Below are positions 8,438 to 59,493 of a DNA stretch of 64,000 bases, one piece after another. Where the stretch lies: contig OZ022577.1 of assembly GCA_963669155.1 (NCBI GenBank), positions 9,328,038 through 9,392,037 of the forward strand, written 5' to 3'. A program made the position numbers and the translations under genes. Every line of letters starts with the position of its first letter. Position 1 is the stretch's first letter. This stretch comes from Arbacia lixula (Eukaryota; Echinodermata; Echinoidea; Arbacioida; Arbaciidae). The notes under the pieces are model-generated. The model did no database searches and had not been told where the DNA came from. It saw nothing but the letters and a program-made list of their open reading frames with translations.

Positions 8438-8575
8438 ATGCCTGAGAACCATACCAAGAATGGAAGGGTCTCGAAAGGAGGGGGAGGAGAAGGTGGGGGA
8501 GGAGAGGGTGGGGAGGAAGGGGACCAGCAGACTCAACAACAGGAGCTCAGCCCTATCGAGGCCCAGACAATAGAG
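8438..8575 (+). CDS. SNAP25: SNAP-25, likely first coding exon (N-terminal tail)
   Basis: Probable start of the t-SNARE SNAP-25, the Qb/Qc SNARE that pairs with syntaxin and synaptobrevin to drive synaptic vesicle fusion. The exon encodes 46 residues from ATG 8438, in a fair Kozak context (CCAACCATGC), and ends ...QTIE followed by the donor GAG|GTAACA in phase 0. Residues 14-28 form a Gly/Glu repeat (GGGGEGGGGEGGEEG) made by a purine-rich GGA/GGT microsatellite, so this part may vary in length. Residues 36-46 (ELSPIEAQTIE) resemble the start of the first SNARE helix in invertebrate SNAP-25. The phase matches the phase-0 acceptor at 42060. About 11 residues expected before SLEST are missing, and no exon for them was found. 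Assignment rests on resemblance and phase, so it is moderately sure. Confidence 0.6.
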
Positions 8576-29856: not shown

Positions 29857-29985
29857 ATGGCGAGCGATTTGGCATTCGACCTCACTTTTTACGAGAGGCG
29901 GCGTGAGCACAGGTCACCTTCGTTGCCGGTGATACGTAGCGACCTGACTGTGGAAGCATGCCTCATGCGAAAGTACTCCAGAGGT
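29857..29985 (+). other. Exon-like open frame ending at a strong donor (unrecognised)
   Basis: ATG 29857 (GGAATGGCG) opens 43 codons, MASDLAFDLTFYERRREHRS...MRKYSRG, that end exactly in phase 0 at AGAGGT|GTAAGT (29985/29986), a near-consensus donor. The phase would allow splicing to the phase-0 acceptor of the SNAP-25 exon at 42060, giving a different N-terminus. One frame in three would fit by chance, and the peptide has no heptad pattern, so this is only a candidate alternative first exon. Confidence 0.25.
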
Positions 29986-31719: not shown

Positions 31720-32550
31720 CCCCAAACTTTTCATTGATAATGAAAAGGCCCTTCATGTAAGCTTTTGTGTGACATGATATTCTTCACATAATTCATACTT
31801 TAAAACTGCCGCTTGAATGATAATTGTTCAATTACCTATGATCAGTGCACTTGTGGAAAATGTCAGATATTTTGTAAGAAATACAAAAATGAGTACAATT
31901 TGCTTACCCTAGAATAATATAATGAGCATCATTAATGTGCATTTATGTATTTAACTGTACATTCTGAGAGGGTGTACATGTAGGTGTCTCATAATGACTC
32001 ACCTCCCATGACCTTTACAAGATTGCCAATAAAACGTCTGTAAAAACATCAAAAGAAGATCTCCTAGTACACCCAGACAGTTTGTCTTGGTTACTGTGAT
32101 CATTGATTGTATATATCTGAAGGAGACATATTGCAGGCACACAAAATATTTACAATTGATATCAATAAGCATGTAGGCAAGATGGAGTAGATGCTAGAGC
32201 ATCCTGGATACAAGAAATGTCATGCAGTATCTCAGGTCGACGTTGGAATCACTGTTGTGGCACAAAGTGAGGTCATAAGTGATATTCAAATACAGGAATA
32301 CTTCAACATTTTCAAGTAGTGACAAAAAATGAAAAATAGAGTTTCATAATTATGGAATGATATGCAGATTATCATGTGACCTGATGTAGCGGTGAAACAT
32401 ACTGTTAATGCGTGGGTGTATGGTGCTTGTGATAATCAGCTTCCCTTTGGAATAAACATATCAGAGTGGAATTACCTTAGAAAAGTAGTTGCAAATGTCA
32501 AAGAAGGTCACCTATAGCAATACAGTTTGTCTGCTTTAACTGCAAATAAA

Positions 32551-32784
32551 GCTTCTTTTCTTATCTATGGTAGATGTCAAAGTACTGAGATTTTTTAGTG
32601 AGAGTAATTTCTCATCATTGCAAAAATAAAGAATATGTAAAACATGAAACACATGAAATATAATATAAAGCACCTTTTCTGTCTTATGGTAGATGCCAAT
32701 GTAATAAGATTTTTTATTGTGTAATTTTCTCATTGCAAAAATTAAGAATATGTAAAACATATGAAACACAAAATATAACATGAA
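32551..32784. repeat. Tandem duplication, period about 119 bp
   Basis: Two units share CTTATSTATGGTAGATG-like starts, GAGATTTTTTA/AAGATTTTTTA, ATTTTCTCAT...TGCAAAAAT(A)AAGAATATGTAAAACAT and AAACACA(T)GAAATATAA. Moderately diverged. Confidence 0.8.
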
Positions 32785-32989
32785 GTTAATAGGACATGTA
32801 TGACTGTCTGTTTCTACCTCAGTTATGGAATATGACTGCTAGCTAGCAACTCATAGACGAGATCTCTGGTGCTGATAATGTATCGCTGCTAAGCTTCGGT
32901 AGCTCGGCTCTTGAAGGAATGAAGGAAGGCCCAGGGTTGAGGCAGGCAGGAAGATGAAGGAAACCAGTGGATGCTCACCTGCACAATGG

Positions 32990-42059: not shown

Positions 42060-42101
42060 TCGCTGGAGAGTACCCGGCGCATGCTGCAGATGTCAGAAGA
42101 G
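42060..42101 (+). CDS. SNAP25: SNAP-25 exon SLESTRRMLQMSEE (first SNARE helix)
   Basis: A 42-nt exon, phase 0 at both ends, with acceptor TTTTTTCTATGCAG|TCG and donor GAG|GTACAG. It encodes SLESTRRMLQMSEE, matching human S25-E38 (SLESTRRMLQLVEE) at 12 of 14 positions and close to fly and nematode SNAP-25. It forms the N-terminal part of the Qb SNARE helix that zips with syntaxin, synaptobrevin and the second SNAP-25 helix. Phase 0 at the 3' end suits either downstream 49-nt exon. This is one of the most certain calls in the window. Confidence 0.95.
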
Positions 42102-43295
42102 GTACAGTAAACAGCCAACTTTTCTTTTCTCAATGTTCTTTGTTTGTGTGTGTATCCAGTTTTATGTTTTGTTTTAGTGTGTATGTGGTGTGTTTTGGGG
42201 AAACTCGTGTTATTATTGGCTTGTCATATGGTTGAATACACCATATTAATGGTTGCTAATATATTAGGTATTTAGAACAAATAAAGACTGAAAACTGGAA
42301 CATGAAGAGGGAACAAAGAAAAAAGGAAAAGGATGATGTTGAACATTTAATTCTTGCTGTAGACGGTTTATTTTTCCTTGTTCCTAGTGTACTAGAAAAC
42401 AGATTTAAGACAAAAAAATACGAATTCAAAAAAGATTGTATCACTGAATGTTTGAAAAAGACAGATTCAACAACAACAAAAATGAATGCAAGAGAGATAG
42501 TGTCACTGAACCTTGGAACACTGTGCTGCCTGGCTCTGTAAGTCGCAGCTTGCCGACAATGAGGTCAGAGAAATTTGAGTTGTAGTACAGAGATTGGCCT
42601 TCAATAGCTTGATCCGCCTTCTGTCTTCCCTTGCTAACTAGAGTCTCACTCTCTCTCTCCTTTTCTCCGTCTCATCTCACGGTAACTCTCATGATTTATG
42701 GAAAACCAAGAGAGCTGAGACCCATTTTTTTTTCCGCTGGGAAAAAGTATGGTTTCCCCTCACAAAACGGCAGCGATGAAGACAGAATGGGAAATTCAAA
42801 GTTTGATAGAAAATGGCGACTGCATACAGACATGCAGCTGCATCCCAGGGTTATTATCTGTGGAAGAAACACTAACTTAACTTTCTATGTGCCAACTTTG
42901 TGGAGGTATGGGCAAGGTCCCAGTGTTAAAATATTTATACTAGTCAAAACAAACTAAAAAGATCAAATAGATCACAGACACAAGAGGGATTTTCCCCAAA
43001 CAGACCCAGTCTCTGACCTCAATGGAGATTTAGTCCTGAGGGGACTAAAAGAGATTAAAAGCTATGCAATCCTTTCAACTGACTGTGTTTCCTTCAGGAA
43101 AGTTCATGCATGAAGCATACATGTGAAAATTGGGATAAGCAAAGACTTTCATAGAGATTGGATGTGATGAATACTTTTTGAAGTTTCTTTCCTAAAAATG
43201 AGCAAGTTGCAGATAAGTAGAGATATATCAGTGAGAGTTGGGGAGGAAACGCATTTACTTTCTTGGTAAACAATGGACACCTATTAGTAAAAAAA

Positions 43296-43502
43296 GTACT
43301 AAAACTTTTACAGGATGGTATCCACAGGAATCTGCATGTACGTAACTTGGTGTAAAGCAAAAAAAGGAGCCAAAAAAAGCGTTATCAGCAAATTGAAATG
43401 TACTAAAACTTTACAGGATGGTATCCACAGGAATCTGCATGTACGTAGCTTGGTGTAAAGCAAAAAAAGGAGCCAAAAAAGGGTTATCAGCAAATTGAAA
43501 TG
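43296..43502. repeat. Near-identical tandem duplication, period 104 bp
   Basis: Two units start GTACTAAAACTTT at 43296 and 43400 and differ by only a few bases through GGATGGTATCCACAGGAATC, TGCATGTACGTA(A/G)CTTGGTG and AGGAGCCAAAAAA. The low divergence suggests a recent event. Confidence 0.95.
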
Positions 43503-46003
43503 TCTGCTGTACAAGCCCGACAGCAAACGTATCCCTCTCTGTGAGGAAATCTGTGAGGAAATCTGACACGAAAGTCACGAGGTTTGCATACTAATGACAA
43601 CAAGCCGGAGCTCATTATTACTAAATGCCGCCCTCGGGCAGGCCACGGAGGCGCACTCCTGGCTGGGGAGGAAGACCCTGGGATTGGAAGCGAGACGAGA
43701 GGTCAGCGCCGGTGAGAAGATGAGACGGGATGAGATGAGATGAGGAGGAGGGGGAAGCAGAGATAACGGGAGCAGCTGATGAGGAAGGTGACACGACCTG
43801 ACCTTATCTCTGGCTCAGCCCCGACGCATTATCTCATGTTTGTGTGGGTTTTATTCAGGGTGGGATCGTATGAAAAACAGTCTTAAGACTGAAGGACCAA
43901 CAGGGAAGTTAGCTCCTGAAAGTGTAAACAAAAGATACACAGAAAAAAAGGAGATGTAGATTAAAGAAACCCTCACAAAATTGAAAAGATCGTCCAAATT
44001 GCAAGAAAAGACAAAAAGGAAGAGGGAAATGGAGGATCTCCAGATTGAATAGGCTTCTCTGGTAACTAGATGTAGTAATGATTTTAAGAAAATAAAGACT
44101 GGCATAATGGAAAGGTCCTCATTTATCACTTACTGGACTCTCTTTGGAAAAAAAATAGAAGAAAATGATTAAATCAAGCCATTCTAAAACATAATACCTC
44201 CTATTGATAAGCATATAAAAGCCATTGCACAGTGTTCTTTGGATTTGGGTAAGTATCTGTATGCAAATAATCCTCACAAGGCATAAAAGTTTGTCAGTTC
44301 TTTGTTTTGAGCACAGATACGTACAAATACTTTCTAGATATAATGTTGGCATATGCTTCTCTTTCAAAGCAAAATATAACATTCCAAATGGCTGTGCTTT
44401 TATGTGAGTGACTTCTTGTTATGTACTGTGATTACAATTGTATTTACAAGTGAGTCCCCTTTCTATGATTACAAAGTGAATTTGGGGAAATATGACACAA
44501 GTGGGAGACAGTAAATTCTGTGCTGACCAAAAGATTTATTTTAACCATATATTTTGTGTGATTTGTGTACGGTTGTTGTACTTGTACTTCCATATCTGTT
44601 TGTCATGGATGCACGTGTCATCTTCTATATCTGTCACTGTTGCTCACTTTCTATTTATACATTTCTTTCTACACTGTCAATCTTAGCTCTGGCACAATCT
44701 GCTATATCAAAATCGGATTCCCTGTCTAATTGAAATTACCCCAGACGTGGTGGGTGTTGACTTTCTCCAAGCCAGTGCTGGTGGCTGTAATCAGTGGCAG
44801 AGTGGGGGAGGAGGCACCCACGCCATGTCTTCTCCCAAGCCACTATTTAAATCAAGAGATAAGGCTGGCGAAAGGGCACATTGAGTCATTCTGATACTTT
44901 GGGAACTCTTTATCCAAACAGTGACAAATGATTTGCATTTATAGGAGATGACAGATTTGGAAAGTGCAATTTCCGGTATTATATTGTGTTAACAACAAAT
45001 TAATCCAGAAATGAAGAGCACAAGGGCGGTAATAAGTCATACGTACACCCTCCTACCCACTCCCGCAATCCAACCCAAATGAAATTAATGAACAAATGAG
45101 CATATCATGACAAAAGTAGGTGAAACAGAGCAAAGAACATAGTCAGGCCAGGAAAAAGAAACTTGCTAAAATATTTAGTTTTAGTTTATTTAGTTTATAG
45201 TTCCCAAAAATGCTATGGATTCACTTTAGCAGCCCTCAAAAATTAAATTTGATTTACTGATATGATTTCAATGTCAATGCGGTTATCTGTTAGTTTGTAC
45301 CTGTCAGCATACAGACAACAACAACATGTAGGTGATGCGTGTGTATTGATACACTGTGAAGAGTTATTATGCCACGCTGATTTGTTCTGCAGATATAGTG
45401 TGTAGGAAGAACAGAATATTTCCCAGAAATACATCTTTTCTTGCCCAACCTCCTATCTGTGACTTTCCTGAGAATCTAGCCATGAGAGTAATTCATCAAT
45501 GCTCTTAGAGACGCCCTACATTCATTTCTGCTCAGCGGATGGAGGCTGTCTTTTGAGTTTGAGTACTTCTGACTCATTGTGTTAAGAGCGAGACATACGT
45601 GTCAAAAGGCTCGTCCTTGAAAGAAAAGAAACGTCTCGCTACACCATTGAACCTCGTAGAACCCCCCTCTGTCAAGATGTCATAGCGCTACAAATTCAAT
45701 TCACCTATTTGCTCATGAATGTAAGTAACTGCAGTGTTTTTTTCCCCTCCACGGCGGAATTCCCGTACAATGCCCATGTAGTGTACCTGCACACATAATA
45801 TAACTCGCATGTTTGTCCACGCAGTCAAACACAAGCGCAGCAAACCAAATTTGAGCAGATATTCAAACACTAGTTTACCATCCCTGGAGGGAGAGTCTGT
45901 ACATAAAGCTGATGCTTGCCGCGCATCAGCAAATTACTCGCTCCAGTCGTCTGTTTCTGCTCTCTGCCAAGAAACAGGAACAAGGAGCGTTTGCGATAGA
46001 GAA

Positions 46004-46021
46004 CCCCCCCCCCCCCCCCCC
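46004..46021. repeat. Poly-C run of 18
   Basis: Eighteen C after GAGAA. Confidence 0.9.
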
Positions 46022-46652
46022 TCAGTCTGCACCAGAAGGGAAAGGCAGATTTATATCTCTCACATTATTATTGTCCCATTGATTGATTGAATTTCTGAAA
46101 ATTGTGTCCATTTTCCCATGATTTCACCTTTTTTTTCTCTTTCTTTTCTCTGTCTCACCTTTTGTGTTCATGTCATCCGTTTGGTTGTCTATGATAATAT
46201 GTGTGTCATATTTCTATTTGTTCATTTGTTGTTAATGTATATGTCTTTGTTAATAATCTTTCCTTTGTGATTTGCTTCTAATAAGGCAGAAAAAAGGGAT
46301 TTAAGAAATCTTTTATGATGGCCCTTGAAATCTGAGAATATCAATTTTCATTGATACAATTTATGAAATGTATATTTGAAAAATTGCATATGTTTTAGGA
46401 ACATGAATCTAATTGTTGTCACCTGATTAAAGCCAAAAAAGGAGGGGTGGGGAGGTTGTACTAAGAAAACTGAAAAATTGGGTTAAACATTTGGTGTGTC
46501 AGGTAGACTAATGTTTAATGTTTAAAACAATTATATTGTTGTTTGTTTCCCATTGTTATAATGTGAAGTGAAATTCTGTGTACATGTACCAATGGCCTAA
46601 CATGTAGTCCCTTGCCTATGTTTTGGTGTAACTCTCAACATTTCCACCTTAG

Positions 46653-46701
46653 AGTCAAGATATGGGCATCAAGACTTTAGTTATGCTGGATGAACAAGGA
46701 G
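46653..46701 (+). CDS. SNAP25: SNAP-25 alternative exon, copy A (SQDMGIKTLVMLDEQG)
   Basis: A 49-nt exon after TTTCCACCTTAG and before the strong donor GAG|GTAAGA. It starts in phase 0 and ends after one base, encoding SQDMGIKTLVMLDEQG plus a G that joins AG of the exon at 59128 to make Glu. It corresponds to human S39-G54 (SKDAGIRTLVMLDEQG), just before the zero-layer Gln53 and including it. Compared with copy B it has Gln, Asp, Met and Met at the human 40, 41, 42 and 49 positions. Q40 and M42 are unusual for the family, so this copy looks like the derived one. Use of both copies, or neither, breaks the frame. Confidence 0.93.
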
Positions 46702-49700
46702 GTAAGATATGATGGACCAGCCGTACAGTCATAACATCACAAATCCTGACCACATGTCCGTCCAAATCTACCTTGTATAATGACTTCATTATCCTTATTA
46801 TCAAAGGAGCGTGTTTTCTTGCACACTGTCTCTGTCTCTGTGTTTGAAATAGGCCAAAGAAGCCGTACAAGTATTCCCAGTTGCCTTTCATGTCTAATTG
46901 CATTCTGTCCCCAGAGGTTAAAACCTTTATTTAAAAAACAAAAGAAATGAAGAAATGTTTTGTAAGTCTTTTCTGCTATACTGTTCTGTCATTCAAAGCT
47001 CATTGAAATTGTAGGGATCTCGCTTTAAAGGGAAAGTCTACCCTGTACTTAAGTTGGTTTTGATTAAATCAGAATAAGTGAAAGAAACAAATAAGTGACA
47101 TTTTGACAAGCATTTATCAAAGGATAACAGAGTTATTAATTTACAAAGTCTTAATTGCGTGACATTGCAAGCTAGTCTACTGTAAATTATTGCATTCTTT
47201 ATTTATTTAATATGGCAGTTGGCTCTAAAGGATATGTATACCATTTCCCCTCTACATTGTATATATTATGAGACACACACACCACTATGAGCAACATTTA
47301 TTCTTTCATCAAACCTCAGAAAAGGGAACATTTATGGAATCCTACAGCACACAACATATTGGAGAGCAGCTCGCAAGTGTCATGATTTTCTTATCTCTTG
47401 ACAGATTTTCGTCAAACATTTACTAATATGCTGTTTTCATCTTTCTGCTATAATTAAAACCAATTCAACTTCATGGTCGTCTTTCCCTAAAAAAAAAAAA
47501 GGGGGGGGGGGGCATTCAGGCTCGCTTGATTCTATACTGTAAATGTTCTTGAGGCATGATTCCTATCTGATTATGAGAGATCCCAAGGGGAAACGTCAGG
47601 TACCAGAGCACATTCTGGTAATCAAATTCATTGCATCTAGAAATAGACATCAACTTTAACCTTCTTGTCCTCGGAAGGATTCCCATGCACAGCATGATTT
47701 AAAACATGGCCTTGTCCTTGCTTATTGCCAATGTCAAGTGTACATGGATGAGTAATTTCATTTGAGCAATCACTCTTTTCTATTTGTTTTAAAAGATTGG
47801 CACAAGAACATGTCTTATAAATCAATGTTTGAGTAATTGAAATGAAAGTAAAGGCCTCCATAGAGTTTTGTGCAAAAAGAAATTAGAAATTAGAAATTTT
47901 GTGAAAACTTAACTTGCTCTCCTTTCTTATCTGGTTGACATGAACAATATATTGCAGAACATATTCTATGGGGTGACACCAAAACATAAAATGTGTATGG
48001 AAAAAGATGACTATTATTCTAGAATGATTTGTAGTATTTGAGGAAAAGGCTTAGTATTTAGCATGCAATTATTTTAGATATTTGAGACATGGTGCAAGAA
48101 ATCACGACTTTCCGTATCTGCTATTCTGGTGAAATCGCTAGCTTTATACTCGGTGCGTATTACGGTCGGTTGTGAGTCGGGATTGTGATGTTAATTGCTG
48201 GAATGGCTGCCAAAGCAGAAGGCAGTGTGACACAATACATGTCTTCTGCTTTCAAAAGCCGACTGCTGAGGAGATTTATCTGAGGAGTTCAGATGTCTCT
48301 CCTCATTCTTTCCAAAGCTCAGTGCCTGTGGTGTGACTGGTCACAGTAGAGGCATTGTGTTAAGGAACATTTTAAGACAATGACATGTCAACTCTGGGCT
48401 CTATAGCTTGACGTGTACTCATGCAGAACTCATGCCCTTAGCATTAATCATGAAAATGCATGCACTTATATTTCTACTGATAAACATGGCAACATGTATA
48501 TCTCATGGGCAGTCATGGATGGTGCTTTGCCATTTTGTTGACTCGATTCCAATGACATGTAGGTTAGTTCATGTACTCGTCATCATTAATGATTCTGCCT
48601 CATCCTTGCCGCTCTCAGCCGGATGCTATCCCTCGCCATGGCAACAAGCATACCCCATCTGGACAAACACCAACTATATACAGCAAAGTCACTAACAGCG
48701 ATAGCAATAATTATTAACAACAGGGAATTTGTACAACTTTGTTAAATTGCTGAGTTGCTTCATTTTGCACCTCACTCACTGATATACAAGACTTATCATT
48801 AATATCAGTGACATTGTGAAAATCTAGCATACAGTTGGTTAACTTGTCAACAGGTTGGCAATTATTTATAGCGCTATGATAACCATCTTTCCAACACAGA
48901 GAAAATCAATAGCACTAACCTCATCTTTCCCCATGGCTCCTTGAGGCTTTCGATGATAACTTCTAGCATTACTAAGAAAAAAAGATACCTAAAAATATCC
49001 ATCTTTACATATTGCTAGAAGAAATCGGAATGTGGTGTATGTTTCGCAGTTTGGTGACGTCCATGCTTGAAGTTAAAAGAGAGGGATATCATTTGCTGGT
49101 GTCAAGTAACGCTGACAGCTGATCCATCACATGCAGTGATCAATGCATGCAAATTAACCGGTGGAAGCAGCCAAACACAGGCAGAGGTGGAGAGGAACAC
49201 AACCTTATGGAATGCAACAGCCGCACAGCCACTCATAAAGTTTTACCGTTTGAAGATAATGACCATGTTTGGATTAGGAACACACAGCAATTCAAAATGC
49301 ATTTTTGTGCTTCAAAGGAAATTGAAATTTGAAAAATTGTTATGAAGTGATGATTAGAGCTGTGTAAATGTTGTATTTCTAAGCCTGTGATCCTAAATTT
49401 AGAAAAAAGTAAGATTAAGTGGTAGAAAGCATGGGTTAACAAGAGTTTGCAGTTCAATATGTCTGATGTGACAGTTAAACATAATGCAGTGGATAATTTT
49501 TGGAATAACAATTAACAATGTTTTCTCTGCTAATATTTGCCTCTTAACCAAGCAAAATTTAGTGACTCTAACCCAGTTTTTTTATCACTCAAACTTGCCT
49601 GTTCTTCCTTCTCCACCTACAGCATGTGTAGCTGCCCCGGTTTAGGCGGTGGTGATGGGTTTTATTTCAACGCAATCTCACCACGCCTATACCTTTGTTT

Positions 49701-49774
49701 TTTCTCTCTCCTCCACCAACACCCCCACATCTATCTATCCCCCATATCTTGACTTCATGCCTTCCCTGGTATAG
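46702..49774 (+). other. SNAP25: SNAP-25 intron between alternative exons A and B
   Basis: Holds a 462-bp foldback element (47027-47488), an A12G12 run right after it, and two TGCATG words (about 48456 and 49144) that match the RBFOX splicing-factor site. The last 150 bases before exon B are rich in C/T (TTTTTTCTCTCTCCTCCACC at about 49700), as PTB sites are. Roles are inference. Confidence 0.75.
47027..47488. mobile_element. Foldback element, AAAGGGAAAG ends
   Basis: The left end AAAGGGAAAGTCTACC...TTGGTTTTGATTA is mirrored at the right end (TAATTAAAACCAATTCAA...GTCGTCTTTCCCT) over about 40 bp with some mismatches. It carries no coding frame. An A12G12 homopolymer pair (47489-47512) begins at its right edge. 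Confidence 0.75.
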
Positions 49775-49823
49775 AGCAAGGAGGCGGGTATCAAGACTTT
49801 GGTGCTCCTGGATGAACAAGGAG
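49775..49823 (+). CDS. SNAP25: SNAP-25 alternative exon, copy B (SKEAGIKTLVLLDEQG)
   Basis: A 49-nt exon after CCTTCCCTGGTATAG and before donor GAG|GTGACA, which is weaker than that of copy A. Phases are identical to copy A. It encodes SKEAGIKTLVLLDEQG, which in its first half matches the common invertebrate form (fly and nematode SKEAGI), so it looks closer to the ancestral exon. The two copies differ at 11 of 49 bases, 4 of them synonymous, and at 4 residues. That bias towards a conserved protein, plus intact splice sites, argues that both are used. The 80 bases after the donor are strikingly C-rich (CACCCCACCCC-type), a context bound by hnRNP K/L-like proteins in other systems. Confidence 0.93.
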
Positions 49824-50868
49824 GTGACATATCAGTGCCCCAGTCTGTTTGCACCCCACCCCACCCAACACCCCACCCCCTTCCTCGTACCCCATCCCGC
49901 CCCATCCCCCATAACGCACCTTGCTCTGTTATGTGTAGTTATAACGGTTACCTATGTGTATAACGCATCATTCTGCAACATATAACCCAAGTGCTCCGCA
50001 GTTTCATCGCTGGCTAACGAGAAGTTAACTTTGAAAGGTCATGTGCTTCCAAGCTACCATACTAAAAAGCCATAAATTACTTAGCTCGTGAACAAAATGT
50101 GTCTTGCAAAATGTGTCTTGCCTTCTGCCACGCCATGGCTTGCAATGCTCAATAGTGCTGTAAAAAAATCTTTGATGAAGTATTATTTGATTTATTTAGA
50201 GTGCTATTTTTTCGTTTTACGGGGGGAGGGAAATTGGGAGTAAGATTTCACAAACAACTACCCTATGTCAAAAATAGTTTCATGTTTGTCCTGTAGCTTA
50301 ATAAGAAGAAGGAGTTTTGCCATCAAGGTAATACAATATCGTGAGATATCCATATTGAGTAAGACGGGAGAGAAAAAAGTGATGATTGGAAATGAAAACG
50401 AGGGAATGAACTCACAATGTATATTTCTTGGAGGATATTATAAGGTGCAAAATCAAATAACCTAAAGACAGATGGGCAGGTAACTATGGAAAATTAAATC
50501 AGAAGAAAAAGGTTTTCTGCAGGCTGTTATACATAGTGTCTAGTGTTTGGTATTAGATTGTAGATTTATGTACAGTTTGGTGTTGTTGATTCGCTGTGTT
50601 TGTCTTTGTATGAGAGACCATAGACTGTCCCCATGTTGATATCAGTGAACAATGCAATAAGGAGGGTGCTAAATTCAACACCAGTCGTGTGTCTTGTTCA
50701 AGTTGCAGAACAAGGGTTAAATTGACATCCGTGGTTTTTAGAGTTCTCAAGGGTTGCGTATTTAACACCAAGTGTAGTAAGTGTATCACCAAGAAAGCAT
50801 TAAATTGATGTGAAGATTGAGTGTTGCTGTATAGTGTAGTGTAAAGTGTTACTGTCTTAGTTTGACAT

Positions 50869-50996
50869 TTAACACCAAAGATATTAAATGCAATACACTT
50901 GGGATGAAATTAACAACAGAGGTATTGAATGCAATGCTCTTGGGATCAAATTAACACCAAAAGTGTTAAATGCAATATTCTTGGCATCAGATTTAA
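50869..50996. repeat. Minisatellite, about 42-bp unit, three copies
   Basis: Units of the form TTAACACCAAAAGTGTTAAA-TGCAAT-CTTGGGATCAAA start near 50869, 50910 and 50952. TTAACACC and its inverse GTGTTAA occur within each unit, so each can form a small hairpin. More scattered AACACCA words occur from about 50680. Confidence 0.75.
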
Positions 50997-51701
50997 AATC
51001 AAAAGTGTTAAAACAGACACTTTTGTGTTTTCCATATGATACACCACCAATTTTTTATTTGAATTTTGTAGTGCAATGTCCCCATGCGTGAATTAGTATC
51101 TAGAATATAGAAAGTAATAATCGGTACATTTGTAACTATCATCGTGATGAATAGCCCAATTTGTGTTTGCTATATGTTTCTATGTTGTGATGTGCTAGTC
51201 ATTCCCACTAACTGTGTAGTTATATCTTCTGTGTGACTCTAGTTCTCAGTGGCCTATTAGAACATGTATACTCACCAGAAGATATGAACATATTATGCAA
51301 TGTATACAAATGTAATCTTCCTCTTGTCCATGTCAAGCACAAGGAATATTCCAGGAATATATGTTGCCTAACACTGTCTGTGTTGCACTAATTACTTCTG
51401 TATAGAATTTTGTGCATTATTTCAGTGTCACACACAAAGTAAAGATGGGGTGATAAATGTAATGATTCTCTGCGCAATTTGTTTTTGTCAACTGAAGCAG
51501 TCTTAATGTATACATCTCCCATATGATACACTTGTTTGCACACATATCCAATCTTGACTAGACTTAGATACCCACCTATGTTTGCTGTGGCATTGTGGCG
51601 CAGAGCATATATTCATATATTGTGCACTTTCCACCACTTCTATTCCTAAGAAGGGTGTTTCTAACATGCCATATGATTTAAGAACACTTCTATAGTGATG
51701 A

Positions 51702-51780
51702 GGGACCATATTCTTGAAACCTTACAAACACTTTCAAACCCTAGTTATGAACTAAATGCGTCATGTAGCTATGCATATTT
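51702..51780 (+). mobile_element. Family C MITE, partial copy
   Basis: GGGACCATATTCTTGAAACC matches the termini of 58609-58718. The following sequence has drifted and the right end is replaced by the foldback element beginning at 51816. Confidence 0.55.
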
Positions 51781-51815
51781 TTTTTATAAACTAGCTAAAT
51801 ACAAAAAAAAAAAAG

Positions 51816-52563
51816 TAAGTCCCCCCCCCCCCCCCTAAGTCAAATAGCATAAATTTTTATCAAAGAGGTTTTGGGCACAATAATGTGGCAGGATTGTTCC
51901 TTATCTTATTGACTAACATATGTGTGAAAATCACATTAATCCAATTAGTCATGCATGAGTGGGCACATTGTTAAGGCAAAAATGTCACTTTTCAAAAATT
52001 ACAAGGGTAATTTTGGGGTTTTGTCACGAATTTTTCATGAATTCTATTTTGGTGCATAATTTATGTCCTTTCAATGTTAATCATCCATCTCTCGATGCAC
52101 TAATACCTATCCCGACACTCAACTCATTGTTCTGGTTGAGTGAGCACCGTTTATCAAATACTCATCCCTCTTGAGTTTGAAACTTTTAAAACCCTCTTAT
52201 TTAGGTGAAAAAATAAAACTCTGGATATTTTGACAAAAATGTAACATGACCTGTTATGTAAACGTGAGAAGTCATTTTCGTGCCATGGTTGAGTGAAAAC
52301 ACGTTAAAAATCACACAATAAATGCCAAAATGTATTGTTAAAACGGCAGAAACAATTACCCTTGTGACTTTTGAAAAGTGACATTTTTTTTCTTCATTTT
52401 TTCCTTTTAAATGTGCCCACTCATGCATGACTAATTGGATTAATGTGATTTTCACACAGAAGTTAGTCAATAAGTTAGGGAACAATCCTACCAAATTATT
52501 TTGTTCAAAATCTCTCCGATAAAAAGTTATTCTATTTTGATAAGGGGGGGGGGGGGGAACTTA
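51816..52563. mobile_element. Long-arm foldback element with poly-C/G termini, 748 bp
   Basis: Arms of about 200-210 bp (51816-52014 and 52353-52563) are inverse copies. Landmarks are TAAGT(C)15 against (G)14AACTTA at the tips, AATCACATTAATCCAATTAG, GTCATGCATGAGTGGGCACA and TTACAAGGGTAA. The central 340 bases carry no recognisable gene. The arms have drifted by small indels, so it is not brand new. Confidence 0.85.
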
Positions 52564-52972
52564 ATTTTTTTGTTATCGAGGTGTCATTAATTTGGCCCCT
52601 TGGTCTGTCACCTAATGTTCCCTATGATCAAGATACGAACTAGCATCGTGAAGCAGTGATTACAGATTACAGATGACTTAAGAATATAAAACAACAAAGG
52701 AGAGAAATAGAGCTAATTATCTCCAATAGAAGAGTGAATAGAAGTATTGTCTGATGTGAAATCCACCGTGCAAATATGTTCTGGTTGTATGTCCTTGAAT
52801 AGTTATGTAAAGAGTGAAGAAGGAGTTAGTCTAGATGTCCAGATCTAGTTGTAGATGCAGCAGTGCATCGGACATAAACAGACCACACTGCAAAGCAGGG
52901 AACCTAGGCTTGCACCCCCTCCCATCTTGCAAGGAAGGAGAGATAATTAGGACATTTCCTTTAATTTTTGGG

Positions 52973-53194
52973 CAGCGTAAACCCAGATCTCTATTATTTA
53001 ATTTCTGACAGTGTAAACCCAGTGCTTATTCACAATTTTTGAATAGTGTATACCCAGCTCTTGTAATCTGTAGGTAGTGTTAACCCAGCTCTTGTCTGTA
53101 ATCTTTGGGCAGTGTAAACCTAGCTCTTGTCTGTAATCTTTAGGCAGTATAAACCCTGCTCTTGTCTGTAAGCTTTGGCCAGTTTAAACCCAGC
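52973..53194. repeat. Minisatellite, about 35-bp unit, seven copies
   Basis: AGTGTAAACCCAG followed by CTCTTGTCTGTAATCTTT recurs with anchors near 52974, 53010, 53045, 53077, 53111, 53146 and 53181. The middle units are the most alike. Confidence 0.9.
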
Positions 53195-53975
53195 CTCCTG
53201 TCTGGGGTGAAGTCCTTCCGCCTGTCTCCTTCCCAGTTTACTGTCTGTGTGTGAAGTGCAATGCTGACCCCTCCAGGTCTCTCACTAGCCTGTCCCCCAG
53301 GCTTTTCGACACTTATAATCGAAATCAGCAAAGCTACATTTGAGTCTGGTACCAACAAGACTTCATCACCTCAATTCCCTATCTTGGGAATTAGAACTTC
53401 ACATCGATTAGTCTAAATCAGCTAGACCCTTGTGAGCTCCTTACCGCACCCGTGATTGTCCAGTTTGGATTAGAAATGTCAAGTACCTTGGAAGCAAGGC
53501 TAATCTCCCAGTAGCTTAACCCCAATTCCCTCTGTGAATTAGTTCTGTGCGTCCCACAGCAACCTGACTGATGATGTGGAAAGTGCAATATGCTTCATCA
53601 CGATGGTCATAAAGTCAGAGATGCTGGCTTGGCAGTCAAAGGTATGACTGTGCAGCCTTGTTCATGGAAAAAAAAACATGTTATATTGAAAACAAATGTA
53701 AAATGTGAAGTGTTTCCATTAGCCCTACACTTATTTGAATGCAATAATATGACCAATGTGTGTCACATTAAATTTGGAAGTGAATGTTTAAGATAAGAGT
53801 TTTGTATACAGTCTCAATAAGATGAATTCTAAGTATTTGTTTCCACTTGGGTTGTTGCACAGAGTAGGATCCTGTGGTATCCTGAGTACTCAGAAGCTCA
53901 GAAGCAATATATGCATGCTTTAGGTGGCTGTGGGAAGGTTATTGATTTCAAGGTGACTCTATCTTTAAAATATTG

Positions 53976-54296
53976 AGTTCTTCCCCCTCTCTCCTTTCTC
54001 TACCTGGGTCTCTCTCTCTCTATCTCCCTCTTTTCTCTCTCTCTTTCAATCTCTCTATCAGTCTCCCTATTCTTTCTTTGACCCTCGTCCCCATCTATCT
54101 CTCTCTTTCTCCTTTTCTTTCTCTTAACTATATTTTCTTTCTCTATCCGTCTTTCTTTCTACCGCCATTACAAGCTCGTTATTTCTTTCTGTCTCCTCCC
54201 GTCTCTTTTCTCCTATCTTTTTTCTTTCCTCCTCTCTCCACTATCTATTTTGCGCTATCCTCTCTAGATGTGCATCTGTCTCTGCCAGTCTTTCTG

Positions 54297-54345
<49 letters not shown>

Positions 54346-54500
54346 CTCTTTCTCTCTACCTAACTATTAACTCTTCCCTTCCTCTCTGTCTCTGCCTGTC
54401 TTCATTTTCTGTATCTATTCCTCTCCTTGTCTCTATCAATTTCTTTCTCTTTTTCCTTCCCTTCATCTGTCTCTCGCTCTCTATCACTCCATCCCTCCTT

Positions 54501-54540
<40 letters not shown>
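53976..54540. repeat. (CT)n-rich microsatellite block
   Basis: C/T-rich on the + strand, with pure CT arrays at about 54299-54342 and 54505-54537. The open frames through it are Ser/Leu repeat artefacts. Confidence 0.9.
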
Positions 54541-54541
<1 letters not shown>

Positions 54542-57500
54542 ACATTTCCAGCCAATCCCACCCATCCAAATCGAGCCCGCCCTTGAATTACGACACGCTA
54601 GTGGCGCACGGAATAACAAGAAACTATTTGGGGTGGGAAGCAGAATGGAAAATTACACTGATCGGATTATGGGGGTGAAACAAGCCAAAAATAATTTCTC
54701 TGTTTATACTTCAGAGCTGCCAATGGAGTGGGAGAGAGGTGTTTGATTGAGAATTATTGTGGGAAGTTGTTTTGAAGGGAGGCCTGGGGGCACCAGTTGA
54801 CAAATCATACTGAAAATGAAATGATTTCTGCCTTCTTTAAGATATATAGTGGAGGGTCTTAAAATATTTGAAGTGTCAGTGTTAATCTGTCTATAAGGAG
54901 AAGTCGTCCCATGAGGCACCACACAGCCATATTCAAATTTTGTTTAGTGTTTGAGTGTATACGTGGACTTGACTACAACAACAACAAAATCCGTCTGTAC
55001 ATATAGCTGCACAGTGCATTTATGGGTGGACTTTTCCCACTTTGCAGTATAGAGAATCGGGAGGATCGATTGATAATCACAGTTTTTGAGCCATTTAGTG
55101 AATTGGTGAAATATTTTCCCAATACTTTAGTTAGGAGAGTTGTATTGATCCAGTGTACATGTGTGTTAGTTGTACCCACATGCAAAAAGAGAAGAAGCTG
55201 AATTGAAAGGGTACGCCGATTGTACCACCTCACTTAATAATGGCAACACCAACAACGAATCAAATCTAAAACAAAATTGAAGCTATGATGAATTCAGCAG
55301 CGTTTGTCCCTGGGCCTTACCAAGAAAAAAAGTCTGAGATAGAGAGAGAGTGTTTCGTTTGTAAGAAAGCACAACACTTGTGCTTGACGACACTTGAGAG
55401 TGAATTATTGTTCACCGTTCACCCGGCGCTGTCTTTGAAGTCGCACTCCATGCACTTTGGGCCACTGAAAATTTGTACCTTAGTGACAAGAAATATATGT
55501 TTCATAACCGAACAGTGATGCAAATTTGGCCCTTCTCTCTCCCAAATTGCTGCTTCAGACAGGAAATGTCATATTTTTATAAGGGACTTTAAAGAAAAAA
55601 TGGATTTGGAGCACCTCTGAGCATATGAGCATATTGACCCAAATACATTGGGGTTGGTGTATGTCATGTGTGGTAATACTTGCTGATGGGTTAATGCAGA
55701 GGGAAAGGGCAGAAAAGAAGAAATAGAGATGAGAAAGTTAGGAAACATGAGATGTGTGAGGGGTGAGTGGTGAAGCCTTTAAAGATTGTCCGTCCCTTTT
55801 GCAAGCTTAAAATTTGAAATCGTCTACCACGATCGTAAATTGAAGAAAGTGTGATTCAAGACCATTTCTAAGAATATAGCATGTTGAAGCTTTCTGTATA
55901 TGTAAAAAAATTCAGCCGTTAAATTTCAAACCAACTTTTTTGTACCACGAAAAAAGTATTAGTCTTTGTTACAGTATCTATGTGGTTATTATGCGTGTGT
56001 GAAATCCTAATTTTATGAGTAACTACCAAACTTTGGAGATGATTCCTTCCATAGAGCAATTTTCTTCATAGTGCGTTTTTTAATTTAATTAACAGATTAA
56101 TCAATAAAGCAGGTATTTCAGCACAAACTGCTAAGAGCCTGAGGTAAAGACTATTAATCAGACGTTGTTTATGTGCATTATTTGAATTTTACACTACGTA
56201 TCAGTTTCAAATTGTGAATATAGAGCTTGCTAACACTTCTCCATATGTTTTGCCAATGTTTCGATGGTTTTGTGGCGATCTGAAAAGGGGACTGGTTGTC
56301 TTTAACTTCTCCGTGATAATGAATATGTTGTCAAGAAAGTAAGATGGGGCTAGTTTTTGGCACGTTCAATAAACCACTTTTCAATATGTATGCAAATGTT
56401 AGGCACATTTTTCAGACAATGCATTACTCATGGTAACCTCAACCTTGTCTGTGGTTTTTCCAACTACACGTAGCAACATCTAATAGATTCAGAGTGCATT
56501 CCACGTATTGAATCCAAATTACTGTCGATCATTGACTCTTATTACTCTTAACTAGTCCCTGAATAAGGCAGTCAGAGAGAAAGTTTCATTCAGTTTGGAT
56601 ATGTGAAGAAAGGTCTGCAGTTGGGTAAAGATTACCCAACAATGAATCAATTTCAAAGGTGATAGTCAATATCATTCCACCAAAAGTCATTTTTAAGTTC
56701 CTATACCCTAAGAGAGGATCTTCAATTTTGTGGTATTGACACAACTTTTTATTTGAGGCATGCAAAATGTTACACCTCCGTTAAAAATTAAGAATTGTGG
56801 GGGTATATGAAAAAAAAAAAAACAATCTGTGTCCAGTTATTTGATATTAGTATTAAACTGCATTAAATTAAATCAGTTTTGTGTGATCAAGCATATTTCA
56901 AAGTCTTGCTTTCTTCTGTTGAGAATTGAATGTTTTGTAACTTAAAATGATTGACTTAAATAATGATTTATGATCTAAATGCAGCACTCATACTATGCCA
57001 TACACTGTTCTTATAGCATTTAGATGTGTAAAGTGACATGTCATCAAGCCAAGATGATATTCAGAATTTGACTTGATTGTAGATGACATGCTGTAAGATT
57101 TATTTGAATGGCAGCTTCATTCTCAAACCAGAACAAATGGCATGAAAATGTATTTCTTATATGGCTTGTGATCACCTTGTGGGTTATGTGTAACACCTAA
57201 CCCACCTCTTGCATCGTCACTGTACAGTATGTCCACATGTAATGATTGCTATATGAAATTATGTTGTCATTGATACCACTCCCCGTCTACCCCAACCCTA
57301 AAACCTAATAAGCTTGAATAAATTCCATTAAAGGAAATGAGTAGTAGAGGTCAAGATTCCTAGACCCGTTATCATGACAGGACCATTCTGCTTTGACCAC
57401 ACCTCTGGTTTTTGTTTGACTCCAAGATTATGTGAGTGAATTGTCTCAAAATTATGAAGTCATGAAAATAGTACAAGACCGGAACCTGTAAATTTGGGCA

Positions 57501-57584
57501 GAAAGGTCCTGCTGTGATTACAGGATCTGAAATCCTGACTACTTCCATCCATCACCTTTAATGTAAACGTAATGTCCTCAGCAC

Positions 57585-57654
57585 TAACTCTAACCCTGAC
57601 TCTAACCCCTAACCCTGACTCTAACCCCTAACCCTAACCCCTAACCCTAACCCT
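57585..57654. repeat. Interstitial telomeric repeat block (CCCTAA)n
   Basis: TAACCC units, with CTAACC and CTGACT variants, run for about 70 bases and end in three near-perfect CTAACCCTAACC units. TTAGGG is the usual metazoan telomere unit, but this block lies inside an intron. Confidence 0.9.
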
Positions 57655-58255
57655 GTGCTCTATGTTTTACATATATCATTTACATATGCATTTGTAGTTT
57701 AGTTTAGATTAATATATAACGCTGCTTATCTGTTCTATCATGTTTCTTTGTGCATAAATACAATGTACATGTGGTATTGTCAGATCACAGATGATACTGA
57801 GATATTTACATACCCCACATCAGTAAAATAAAATATACAGAGCTAGATTTGTAGATTACAAGGCTCATTATAGACTGCTTGTACCCACATTAAACAATCA
57901 ACAGTATACAATTATTATTTTTTTTTGTTAGATTAGCTATTTTCTTTCCATGTATGGCATTGAGGTGCTTTAAAACTAATTGACATTTTTATCATAAATG
58001 CTGTAAAAGGCCTTGTTTTACATTACTAACCACCATGATGCATGAGGATAATGATAGAAAAGCAGTAGTTTTGTGATTGCACGTTAATTGATATGCACAG
58101 TGTGATGTGCTATGTCTCCATGGATGACAGAATGCATTTAGTTAGATGATTAATCCAAATCACTCAGTCCACAAAGAACCATAACATTCTCTCAGAATAT
58201 GTTCTGTATTGGTTTTCAAGAAGAAACAAGTTTTCCCTCAATCAGGTCAATGTGG

Positions 58256-58391
58256 GTCCTGTCTTATAAAGACTTCAGATTGATATGATACAATTGCAAG
58301 TCCAGTCCCCTATCTTGAATGTACAGACCAACGATTGATATCAATCGGAACTCAGTTGCGATCAATCACAGATCTTTATAAGACAGGACCC
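58256..58391. mobile_element. 136-bp foldback MITE
   Basis: GGGTCCTGTCTTATAAAGA and TCTTTATAAGACAGGACCC are exact inverse ends. The interior also shows ATTGATATCAAT palindromic sequence. Confidence 0.85.
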
Positions 58392-58527
58392 TGCTTGAGC
58401 GATGGAATTGATTACAATCATTATTTTGTGCACTTTGTTTGTTGGGTATGGTTAATTGTTTCAATATTATTTTGAAAGGATTTTATGTAGCCAATCCTTT
58501 GCAGATATTGTAACTTACTTTATATCA

Positions 58528-58586
58528 CAACTACCATGGCAACAGCTGCATGCTCAGAGCTGATTGGCTGGCTCCATGGTAGTTAC
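58528..58586. repeat. Short inverted repeat
   Basis: AACTACCATGG at about 58529 and its inverse CCATGGTAGTT at about 58574 flank some 36 bases. It may be a small hairpin or MITE remnant. Confidence 0.6.
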
Positions 58587-58608
58587 AGTGTATATGCGAT
58601 GTAGCACT

Positions 58609-58718
58609 GGGGCCATATTCATGAAACCTTACTAGCCTACTTTGTTACTAAATATGCATGCAGCTGAATGCACTTTAGTAACCTTCAAGGCTAAGTAGGG
58701 TTTCATGAATATGGTCCC
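58609..58718. mobile_element. Family C MITE, complete copy, 110 bp
   Basis: GGGGCCATATTCATGAAACC...AGCC and ...GGCTAAGTAGGGTTTCATGAATATGGTCCC pair over most of their length. Partial relatives lie at 18975-19052 and 51702-51780. Confidence 0.8.
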
Positions 58719-59127
58719 TGGTCTGTAGGTAAGTGATGTATGTATTTCATAGTCGATTGTGTACTCACTATCAATTTTTTTTTAAAGTCATGTTTTATGT
58801 TTTTACTGATCATGTGAATAGTACAGTGTTGCTAAACAGGAAGTTCTTGGTGTCCCATGGTGATCCATAATCTCCCATACAAAACGTATAGGGCACCATG
58901 AGATACCACTAAGTTCCTTAAAGGCCACCTCAGATGAAACAATTTGAACCCCATTGTATGACTCTACGACTGGCTGATTTCACATATCCAGTCGTAGGTC
59001 GTAGATCGTAATGACTGTAGAATCTTGGTAAAATTGTGTCGTCTGCAGAGGCCTTCAGAGCGATACTGTATTTCACAATGGCTGTTCTTTGACTGAAATC
59101 TCCCTCCTTGCACCCCTCGTAACTCAG

Positions 59128-59245
59128 AGCAACTGGACCGCATTGAGGAGGGCATGGACCAGATCAACACTGACATGAGAGAGGCCGAGAAGAACCTCAC
59201 CGGCCTTGAGAAGTGTTGCGGCATCTGCGTCTGCCCCTGGAAGAA
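59128..59245 (+). CDS. SNAP25: SNAP-25 exon: SNARE helix end and cysteine cluster
   Basis: A 118-nt exon with acceptor CCCTCGTAACTCAG|AGC and donor AAGAA|GTAAGT. It takes one base from the upstream 49-nt exon and leaves two for the next. It encodes (E)[28 protein letters not shown], then [11 protein letters not shown]. This is the second half of the Qb SNARE helix and the start of the linker. The four cysteines correspond to human 84, 85, 88 and 90; position 92 is Trp, as in nematode. In other animals such cysteines are palmitoylated to hold the protein at the plasma membrane. It equals the vertebrate exon 5 that exists as a duplicated 5a/5b pair; only one copy is visible here. The 3' part of the gene lies outside the window. 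Confidence 0.95.
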
Positions 59246-59310: not shown

Positions 59311-59493
59311 GGGGGGTGTTTCTCCAAGCTGTTCGTAAGTTACGAACGACTTCATGAGCGACTGGTGATCCCTTCTTGTGCTATATGTGATACCACACTT
59401 TGTTCGTTGAGAATCTGATTTAGCACAAGAAGGGATCACCAGTCGTTCGTAAAGTCGTTTGTAACTTACGAACATCTTGGTGAAACACCACCC
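59311..59493. mobile_element. Foldback MITE, about 180 bp
   Basis: GGTGTTTCTCCAAGCTGTTCGTAAGTTACGAAC is mirrored by GTAACTTACGAACATCTTGGTGAAACACC, and the inner arms (GACTGGTGATCCCTTCTTGT and ACAAGAAGGGATCACCAGTC) are exact inverses. The whole element is nearly one hairpin. Confidence 0.9.

What the first reader, a model, noticed from the sequence alone, without database searches (positions are those of the whole stretch)
46653..49823. Duplicated SNAP-25 exon: a probable mutually exclusive pair in the exon next to the one duplicated in vertebrates
Seen: two 49-nt exons, 3.1 kb apart, both with canonical AG/GT borders and identical 0/1 phases, encoding SQDMGIKTLVMLDEQG and SKEAGIKTLVLLDEQG. 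Known: vertebrate SNAP-25 has a duplicated exon 5 (residues about 56-94), giving SNAP-25a/b. Here that exon (59128-59245) looks single, while the exon before it (human S39-G54) is duplicated. Inference: an independent origin of SNAP-25 isoform choice in this lineage, affecting the SNARE helix just before the zero layer.
Basis: partly seen in the sequence, partly recalled or inferred. Interest (0 to 1): 0.88.

Follow-up and report, generated by a model that had tools for sequence, protein, structure and literature searches.

The report
Ancient switchable exon in SNAP-25
In what is likely a sea urchin, the gene for the secretion protein SNAP-25 holds two versions of one small exon, likely used one at a time and predicted to change how the protein meets the calcium sensor that triggers secretion; closely matching pairs occur in other echinoderms, acorn worms and molluscs, and a looser pair in insects, so the choice likely predates most living animal groups.

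Summary
Confirmed: 4A (46653-46701) and 4B (49775-49823) are two 49-nt, phase 0/1, AG/GT-bordered copies of SNAP-25 exon 4, the only ones found in 254 kb. Both or neither shifts the frame into an early stop, so one-at-a-time use is likely; no RNA was available. "Independent origin in this lineage" is not supported: types A (SQD-V/L/M-G) and B (SKEAG) occur together in 11 of 71 named genera (echinoderms, hemichordates, molluscs), and a B plus an A-like copy in three insect models. All 13 B copies in the tree form one clade; forced separate duplications fit worse. Against: 16 residues only, some both-B pairs, and insect order is B-A, not A-B. The swap changes surface residues, above all residue 40 (K in B, not K in A in 14 of 15 pairs), a published synaptotagmin-1 contact and one of three interface differences between SNAP-25 and SNAP-23. 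Three alternative first and three last exons allow 18 in-frame isoforms. Vertebrate-style exon 5 appears single here.

The parts
46653..46701 (+). SNAP-25 exon 4A (SQDMGIKTLVMLDEQG), type A, Q at human position 40
   Evidence: AG/GT borders, phase 0/1; profile score 57.8 bits; same peptide in Diadema and Lytechinus proteins
49775..49823 (+). SNAP-25 exon 4B (SKEAGIKTLVLLDEQG), type B, K at human position 40
   Evidence: AG/GT borders, phase 0/1; profile score 54.6 bits; type-B peptides in Asterias, Acanthaster, hemichordates, molluscs, insects
42060..42101 (+). SNAP-25 exon 3 (SLESTRRMLQMSEE), the shared donor for 4A and 4B
59128..59245 (+). SNAP-25 exon 5, one copy found, the shared acceptor; homologous to the exon duplicated in vertebrates
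8438..8575 (+). alternative first coding exon N2 (MPENHTKNGRV...SPIEAQTIE)
   Evidence: tblastn match to the N-termini of Amphiura isoform X2 (E 5e-4) and Antedon isoform X1 (E 1e-6), partly glycine-rich; ends in GT, phase 0
29857..29985 (+). alternative first coding exon N3 (MASDLAFDLTFYERRREHR...MRKYSRG)
   Evidence: tblastn match to the N-terminus of Lytechinus pictus isoform X2 (E 3e-22); ends in GT, phase 0

Best explanation
One SNAP-25 gene holds two 49-nt copies of exon 4 that are likely spliced one at a time and would swap residue 40 of the first SNARE helix between glutamine (4A) and lysine (4B) at the predicted synaptotagmin-1 contact. Shown: both copies are open, in phase, of two types that recur in several phyla, and pairs differ mainly at surface positions. 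Inferred: splicing joins exon 3 to either 4A or 4B and then to exon 5, and transcripts with both or neither would hit an early stop and be removed. Inferred: 4B keeps the full published set of SNAP-25 residues that meet synaptotagmin-1 (K40, D51, E52, E55, Q56, D166), while 4A lacks K40 and would weaken or retune that contact, so a cell could set how tightly release is clamped and triggered by calcium. Inferred: the pair arose before the protostome-deuterostome split; vertebrate SNAP-25 likely kept a type-B exon alone and later duplicated exon 5.
For: Two open copies with equal length, phase and splice borders. Frame logic, joined with the first N-terminal and third last exon: both or neither gives a stop at codon 70 or 57, more than 350 nt before the last junction. 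One gene at the sensitivity used: exon 7 matches one place in the 607-Mb genome at E <= 1, and a 41-aa exon 4/5 query one place. Other species: of 17 same-species isoform pairs that I picked, 14 have equal length and 12 of those 14 (9 species) differ only inside the 16 exon-4 residues. Both types in 11 of 71 named genera (2 echinoderm, 3 hemichordate, 6 mollusc). Position 40 differs in 14 of 15 species pairs, with K on the B side each time; core-facing positions differ in 5 of 75 cells, other positions in 74 of 165. All 13 B copies in the tree form one clade (no support values computed); trees with separate duplications are 25.9 and 34.5 log units worse (AU p 0.0025 and 0.0001). K40, D51, E52, E55, Q56 and D166 are named as primary-interface residues (PMC8967716, passages). 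Mutating the interface on both sides, K40A included, abolished the clamp (PMC7220375, passages). Human K40E is a reported pathogenic variant in the synaptotagmin-interface group that perturbed evoked release (PMC10102358, passages). A synaptotagmin-1-like gene in the same genome keeps 5 of 5 partner residues R281, E295, Y338, R398, R399.
Against: No RNA was available, so exclusive use is inferred. Isoforms of other species are database gene models whose read support I could not see. Copy order differs: A then B in the window, B then A in three insect models. Insect second copies are barely nearer to ambulacrarian A than to B (11.0 against 10.3 of 16 residues). Only 16 residues carry the signal, and selection could make copies converge; the strict single-duplication tree was itself rejected against the best tree (AU p 0.021), and setting the insects apart cost it only 5.3 log units. 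In Haliotis and Crassostrea both members of the pair are type B; Dreissena, Pecten, Mizuhopecten and tunicates are intermediate. K40Q alone was not measured in any passage I saw; K40E did not change spontaneous release, and modelling cited in the same review ascribes it to weaker intramolecular contacts. No regulator or RNA structure that enforces the choice was established.
Confidence: 0.6

Rival explanations
1. Exon 4 was duplicated separately in echinoderm/hemichordate, mollusc and insect ancestors, and selection drove one copy to the same SKEAG form each time.
For: Order of copies is reversed between the window (A-B) and three insect models (B-A). The insect second copies are only weakly A-like. 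Convergent tandem exon duplication in orthologous genes is reported as common between human and Drosophila (PMC9741552, passages).
Against: In that paper's calcium channels the independent events affect different exons, whereas here the same exon shows the same residue swap. Separate-duplication trees fit worse by 25.9 and 34.5 log units. Leave-one-species-out classification put 26 of 26 copies in the type that I had assigned. All 6 named non-bilaterian genera are type A, so each separate origin would need the same Q-to-K and V-to-A changes again.
Confidence: 0.25
2. The two exons are used one at a time, but what matters is another partner of the SNARE surface (complexin, alpha-SNAP, Munc13/Munc18, G proteins; partners recalled except alpha-SNAP), not synaptotagmin-1.
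For: Positions 41, 42, 45, 47 and 49 also differ often (12, 13, 9, 5 and 7 of 15 pairs). Modelling cited in PMC10102358 predicts that V48F and D166Y impair alpha-SNAP binding.
Against: The most consistent change is K40, a named synaptotagmin-1 contact, and the partner residues are conserved in this genome.
Confidence: 0.3
3. One copy is a rarely used or decaying relic, and the gene effectively has one exon 4.
For: 4B has a weaker-looking donor (GAG|GTGACA, no G at +5) than 4A (GAG|GTAAGA) (judged by eye, not scored). No RNA was seen.
Against: Both copies are open, in phase and match types kept in other phyla. Related species have annotated isoforms with each type.
Confidence: 0.06
4. The second copy is an allelic or assembly duplication.
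For: None found; a genome-wide DNA check of the flanks was asked for but not answered.
Against: The copies differ at 11 of 49 bases and 4 residues, flanks show only 26-42% ungapped identity, both lie on one 39.9-Mb contig, and exons 3, 5, 6 and 7 have one confident match each in 254 kb.
Confidence: 0.01

Closest known systems
Vertebrate SNAP-25a/SNAP-25b (mutually exclusive exons 5a/5b)
   Same: Same gene, tandem copies of one short exon in the first SNARE helix, a few residues exchanged, predicted one-at-a-time use.
   Different: The neighbouring exon (human residues 39-54, with zero-layer Q53) is duplicated here, while exon 5 has one confident match. The vertebrate duplication is dated to early bony fish and described as absent from Torpedo and Drosophila (PMC2581893, passages); the exon-4 pair looks far older.
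Vertebrate paralogues SNAP-25 and SNAP-23
   Same: At or near the synaptotagmin interface they differ by K40Q, L47I and V48T (PMC8967716, passages), which includes the K/Q swap of 4B/4A; log-odds put SNAP-25 exon 4 (PDB 6ip1_C) with B (-14.0 bits) and SNAP-23 exon 4 (PDB 1nhl_A) with A (+12.6 bits).
   Different: Two genes in vertebrates, two exons of one gene here. SNAP-23 has A42, a B-like residue, and SNAP-25 has D41, an A-like one, so the match is mixed.
Ancient invertebrate mutually exclusive exon pairs, e.g. Ca-alpha1T/cca-1
   Same: Tandem exons conserved across phyla and apparently lost before chordates, as described in PMC9741552 (passages).
   Different: Ion channel, protostomes only; the SNAP-25 pair spans deuterostomes and protostomes and lies in the core fusion machinery.

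Membership tests
Tandem-duplicated, mutually exclusive exons | neighbouring homologous exons of equal length and phase with canonical borders | tested here: met
Tandem-duplicated, mutually exclusive exons | including both or neither destroys the reading frame | tested here: met
   49 nt each; early stops in both cases
Tandem-duplicated, mutually exclusive exons | exactly one copy in each mature transcript | not testable with these tools
   no RNA; related species' gene models swap, not add, the exon (12 of 14 equal-length pairs that I picked), but three insect models include both
SNAP-25 family | Pfam PF00835 above its cut-off, both isoforms | tested here: met
   69.8 bits against a cut-off of 25 for the 4A and 4B forms with N1 and the third last exon
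SNAP-25 family | zero-layer glutamine, cysteine cluster and second SNARE helix | tested here: met
   DEQG, CCGICVC and exon 7 in the joined reading frame; feature names recalled
Vertebrate SNAP-25a/b type | duplicated exon 5 | tested here: not met
   one confident exon-5 match in 254 kb, 5,000 of them N
One bilaterian exon-4 duplication | type-B copies of different phyla group together | tested here: met
   13 of 13 B copies in one clade; AU tests; 16 residues only, no support values
One bilaterian exon-4 duplication | type-A copies of different phyla group together as well | tested here: inconclusive
   A copies mix with non-bilaterian sequences in the best tree, and the strict tree with A and B both monophyletic per group is rejected against it (AU p 0.021)
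One bilaterian exon-4 duplication | same order of copies in all lineages | tested here: not met
   A-B in the window, B-A in Exocentrus, Aphis and Cotesia models; order in other phyla not seen
One bilaterian exon-4 duplication | only the unduplicated, A-like form outside bilaterians | tested here: inconclusive
   6 of 6 named non-bilaterian genera are type A, but only the best 120 hits per search were seen

The most novel reading that the evidence does not exclude
The last common ancestor of bilaterians already chose between two SNAP-25 exon-4 types that set the synaptotagmin-1 contact of the SNARE complex (K40 on, non-K40 off); vertebrates gave up the splice choice by splitting the two types between paralogous genes, SNAP-25 (type B) and SNAP-23 (type A), and then built a new choice in the next exon. 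In this echinoid lineage the old switch still works together with three alternative first and three alternative last exons, up to 18 SNAP-25 forms from one gene.
Probability: 0.35. Interest if true: 0.87.

Novelty: new variant of a known kind. Interest (0 to 1): 0.76.

Why it matters
PMC2581893 (passages) presents SNAP-25 isoform choice as a duplication of bony fish and higher vertebrates that serves complex neuronal processes. If an older switch exists in echinoderms, acorn worms, molluscs and insects, tuning of the fusion machinery by splicing is ancient and vertebrates replaced rather than invented it. The swapped residue is a synaptotagmin-1 contact with a reported human disease variant (K40E), and two natural A-side exons (Babylonia X1, Cotesia) carry E at that place. 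That makes a clear biochemical test possible, for instance in sea urchin eggs and larvae.

Tried and rejected
Second copy as chance: rejected by the profile scan. Assembly duplicate: rejected on unlike flanks and single other exons; a genome-wide DNA check of the exon flanks was asked for but did not complete.

Competing RNA structure: a scan of 42102-59127 gave 16 inverted pairs, without a shuffled control. Twelve lie inside one intron; the largest (51805-51984 / 52395-52574) looks like a foldback element in the 4B-exon 5 intron. Four link different introns (I9, I12, I14, I15: 18-29 nt, 72-84% complementary). They were not followed up, so a docking/selector structure is neither shown nor excluded. 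Steric hindrance: unlikely, the intron between the copies is 3073 nt. Incompatible spliceosomes: both introns are GT-AG. Regulator motifs: 8 motif types around six exons, 96 counts, no correction for number of tests; the largest excess is TGC-type sites in the 300 nt after 4B (5 sites, printed as 0.00 of about 2000 background stretches), others such as PTB-like sites before 4B reach 0.02-0.04 and could be chance. No Rfam family reached its gathering score in the window.

Trees: Ptychodera (exon 4 like the other hemichordates), Babylonia, Haliotis and Crassostrea pairs were left out of the tree; Haliotis and Crassostrea are both-B pairs and speak against a clean A/B rule. Ptychodera and Crassostrea were also left out of the 15-pair position count. 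In one search the strict constrained trees were all rejected against the unconstrained one (single duplication AU p 0.021; separate in three groups 0.0004; ambulacrarian/mollusc single with insects apart 0.0007), so the better test is the looser one, which I designed after seeing and in which the B-clade tree is the best tree itself. The A/B labels were mine, the log-odds table was trained on those same 26 copies, and several copies are identical, so the leave-one-species-out result (26 of 26) is only partly independent. The isoform pairs were picked by me because they are from one species and, Mya excepted, differ at exon 4. Protein searches list only the best 120 of 1638, 1695 and 2196 hits, clustered at 90% identity, so absence of a type in a genus means little; 60 of the 175 proteins were not given a name in my table (25 A, 31 B, 4 intermediate).

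A report of an exon-4 duplication in SNAP-25 was not found in ten searches of an open-access library (listings with titles and starts of abstracts) or in passages of seven papers; in an eighth, PMC9811660, my terms gave no passage. Searches were about the interface and disease variants, not about duplication. Subscription papers and databases of predicted exons were not seen.
Full report
WHAT IS THERE. The window holds part of one SNAP-25 gene on the plus strand. Exon 3 (42060-42101) is followed by two 49-nt exons, 4A (46653-46701) and 4B (49775-49823), and then exon 5 (59128-59245); all borders are AG/GT and the frame is unbroken with either copy. The copies share 38 of 49 bases; flanking intron sequence shows 26-42% ungapped identity. 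Of eight differing codons, four are silent (S39, G43, L47, V48) and four change the residue: Q40K, D41E, M42A, M49L, written A to B in human numbering. A profile built from 57 distinct exon-4 peptides finds only these two places above 2 bits in 254 kb (5,000 of them N) on both strands (57.8 and 54.6 bits; best score in one shuffled copy -4.6).

THE WHOLE GENE. The genome (607 Mb, 590 contigs) places the window at C2:9328038-9392037. Fetching 190 kb beyond the window and matching proteins of other echinoderms and hemichordates gives the full coding gene. In window coordinates, where negative or above 64000 means outside the window, there are three alternative first coding exons (N1 -14441 to -14364, N2 8438-8575, N3 29857-29985), exon 3, 4A, 4B, exon 5, exon 6 (70434-70571), exon 7 (74267-74411) and three alternative last exons (79010-79072, 83307-83375, 90603-90671). 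The last three are weakly similar to each other (tblastn E 0.040-0.045 in 254 kb), so they too look like tandem copies. All 3 x 2 x 3 = 18 combinations are open and in frame. First and last exons have counterparts in annotated isoforms of other echinoderms: N1 and the third last exon in Diadema, N2 in Amphiura and Antedon, N3 and the second last exon in Lytechinus, the first of the last exons in Patiria. Exon 7 matches one place in the genome at E <= 1, so I see no second SNAP-25-type gene at that sensitivity. Diadema is an echinoid (Lytechinus recalled), so this is likely an echinoid.

WHY ONE AT A TIME. Each copy is 49 nt, so both together or none shifts the frame: joined with N1 and the third last exon, stops come at codon 70 and codon 57, more than 350 nt before the last exon junction. 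From general knowledge such mRNAs are degraded. That is an argument about outcome, not a demonstrated splicing switch: no RNA was available, intron pairings were only listed and motif counts were not convincing. In other species the database isoforms swap the exon rather than add it: of 17 same-species isoform pairs that I picked, 14 were of equal length; 12 of those (9 species) differ only inside exon 4, one (Saccostrea) in exon 4 and the last exon, one (Mya) in the last exon only. These are database models whose read support I did not see, and three insect models include both copies in one polypeptide.

NOT A PRIVATE INVENTION. Two exon types recur instead: A, usually S-Q-D/E-V/I/L/M-G-I/V-K-T, and B, S-K-E-A-G-I-x-T. 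Among 175 proteins retrieved (only the best 120 of 1638, 1695 and 2196 hits are shown), both types occur in 11 of 71 genera named in my table: Acanthaster, Apostichopus, Glandiceps, Ptychodera, Saccoglossus, Babylonia, Mercenaria, Patella, Physella, Pomacea and Saccostrea. Three insect gene models (Exocentrus, Aphis, Cotesia) carry a B copy followed by an A-like copy. The 6 named non-bilaterian genera are all type A; the four named vertebrates, three tardigrades and three annelids are type B; amphioxus and Lingula are type A; named arthropod genera are 5 A and 9 B; tunicates and three bivalve genera are intermediate. Haliotis and Crassostrea have exon pairs whose members are both type B, which shows turnover or separate later copies.

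PHYLOGENETIC TEST. The set is the 16 residues of 26 bilaterian copies (5 ambulacrarian, 5 mollusc, 3 insect species) and 6 non-bilaterian ones. In the best tree all 13 B copies form one clade (log-likelihood -254.7; no support values). Forcing the copies of each of the three groups together gives -289.1 (AU p 0.0001), and forcing deuterostome and protostome copies apart -280.5 (AU p 0.0025). Stricter trees, with A and B monophyletic within each group, were all rejected against the best tree: one duplication -275.8 (AU p 0.021), one duplication with insects apart -281.1 (0.0007), three duplications -291.2 (0.0004). Mean identities out of 16 tell the same with less force: ambulacrarian-mollusc B-B 14.1, A-A 12.7, A-B 12.0 and 9.8; within species A-B 11.2 and 10.4; insect A to ambulacrarian A 11.0 and to B 10.3; insect B to ambulacrarian B 13.2 and to A 9.6. 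So the B type is well held across phyla, while the insect A-like copy is a weak match. Sixteen sites are few, and the model has no selection for convergence. The main contrary fact is order: 4A precedes 4B here, but in the three insect models the B-type exon comes first. A tandem A-B unit that was duplicated again and then pruned could give B-A; so could an independent event. Genomic order in other phyla was not available.

WHAT THE SWAP CHANGES. Over 15 species pairs (Ptychodera and Crassostrea not counted) residue 40 differs in 14, with K on the B side each time (opposite: Q in 9, H in 2, E in 2, R in 1); in Haliotis both have K. Residue 42 differs in 13 and 41 in 12. Positions that face the helix-bundle core (39, 43, 46, 50, 53; register recalled, anchored on I67 as layer +4 in PMC10911398, passages) differ in 5 of 75 cells, the other eleven in 74 of 165. 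The exon choice thus leaves the core nearly alone and repaints the surface. K40 belongs to the SNAP-25 residues named for the synaptotagmin-1 primary interface: K40, D51, E52, E55, Q56, D166 (PMC8967716, passages); by eye the other five are present in the window gene with either copy. The same paper says that at or near this interface SNAP-25A and SNAP-23 differ only by K40Q, L47I and V48T. Mutating the interface on both sides (five synaptotagmin-1 and five SNAP-25 changes, K40A included) abolished the clamp in a reconstituted assay (PMC7220375, passages). Human K40E is listed among pathogenic variants, was grouped with the synaptotagmin interface, and perturbed evoked but not spontaneous release; modelling cited there ascribes it to weaker intramolecular contacts (PMC10102358, passages). 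In this genome a synaptotagmin-1-like gene keeps 5 of 5 partner residues (R281, E295, Y338, R398, R399) over three matched pieces, while another synaptotagmin keeps 1 of 5; I looked at these two of 37 matching places grouped in four loci. I therefore infer that 4B gives full, and 4A reduced or altered, synaptotagmin-1 contact. This is a prediction.

VERTEBRATES. SNAP-25 exon 4 (PDB 6ip1_C) scores as B (-14.0 bits) and SNAP-23 exon 4 (PDB 1nhl_A) as A (+12.6 bits), although SNAP-23 has the B-like A42 and SNAP-25 the A-like D41. One reading is that vertebrates split the two exon types between two genes and later duplicated exon 5. The exon-5 duplication is dated to early bony fish and described as absent from Torpedo and Drosophila (PMC2581893, passages). 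Human splice-donor variants c.72+1 and c.114+2 (PMC10102358) imply human exon ends after codons 24 and 38, so exon 4 starts at the same codon as here.

NOVELTY. Ten searches of the open-access library, eight of them on this topic, did not turn up a report of an exon-4 pair in SNAP-25. Tandem exon switches as such are well known, and convergence between human and fly is common (PMC9741552, passages). What appears new is the position, the breadth across phyla, and the match of the swapped residue to the calcium-sensor contact and to the SNAP-25/SNAP-23 difference.

Noticed in passing
window coordinates 79010-79072, 83307-83375, 90603-90671 (contig C2, beyond the window): Three weakly similar alternative last exons that replace the end of the second SNARE helix; annotated mollusc and hemichordate isoforms also differ in their C-terminal exon.
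   Followed up: partly
8438-8575 and 29857-29985: Two alternative first coding exons of SNAP-25 inside the window, each with a counterpart in other echinoderm isoforms; N2 is glycine-rich.
   Followed up: partly
51805-51984 and 52395-52574: Large imperfect inverted repeat (180-nt arms, 86% complementary), probably a foldback transposon in the intron after 4B.
   Followed up: no
46247-46264 / 48703-48720 and 48754-48772 / 50443-50461: Short complementary stretches (18-19 nt, 83-84%) that link the introns on either side of 4A and of 4B; no control was run, could be chance.
   Followed up: no
23587-23795, 32546-32785, 43292-43503: Roughly two-copy tandem repeats with units of 103-115 bp.
   Followed up: no
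59320-59490: Sequence just after exon 5 shows a long imperfect palindrome, seen by eye.
   Followed up: no
protein P0036: A sea cucumber record named 'ovarian synaptosome-associated protein 25-like, partial' carries a type-B exon (SKEDAIRTLVALDEQG), a hint that B may be used in ovary or egg.
   Followed up: no
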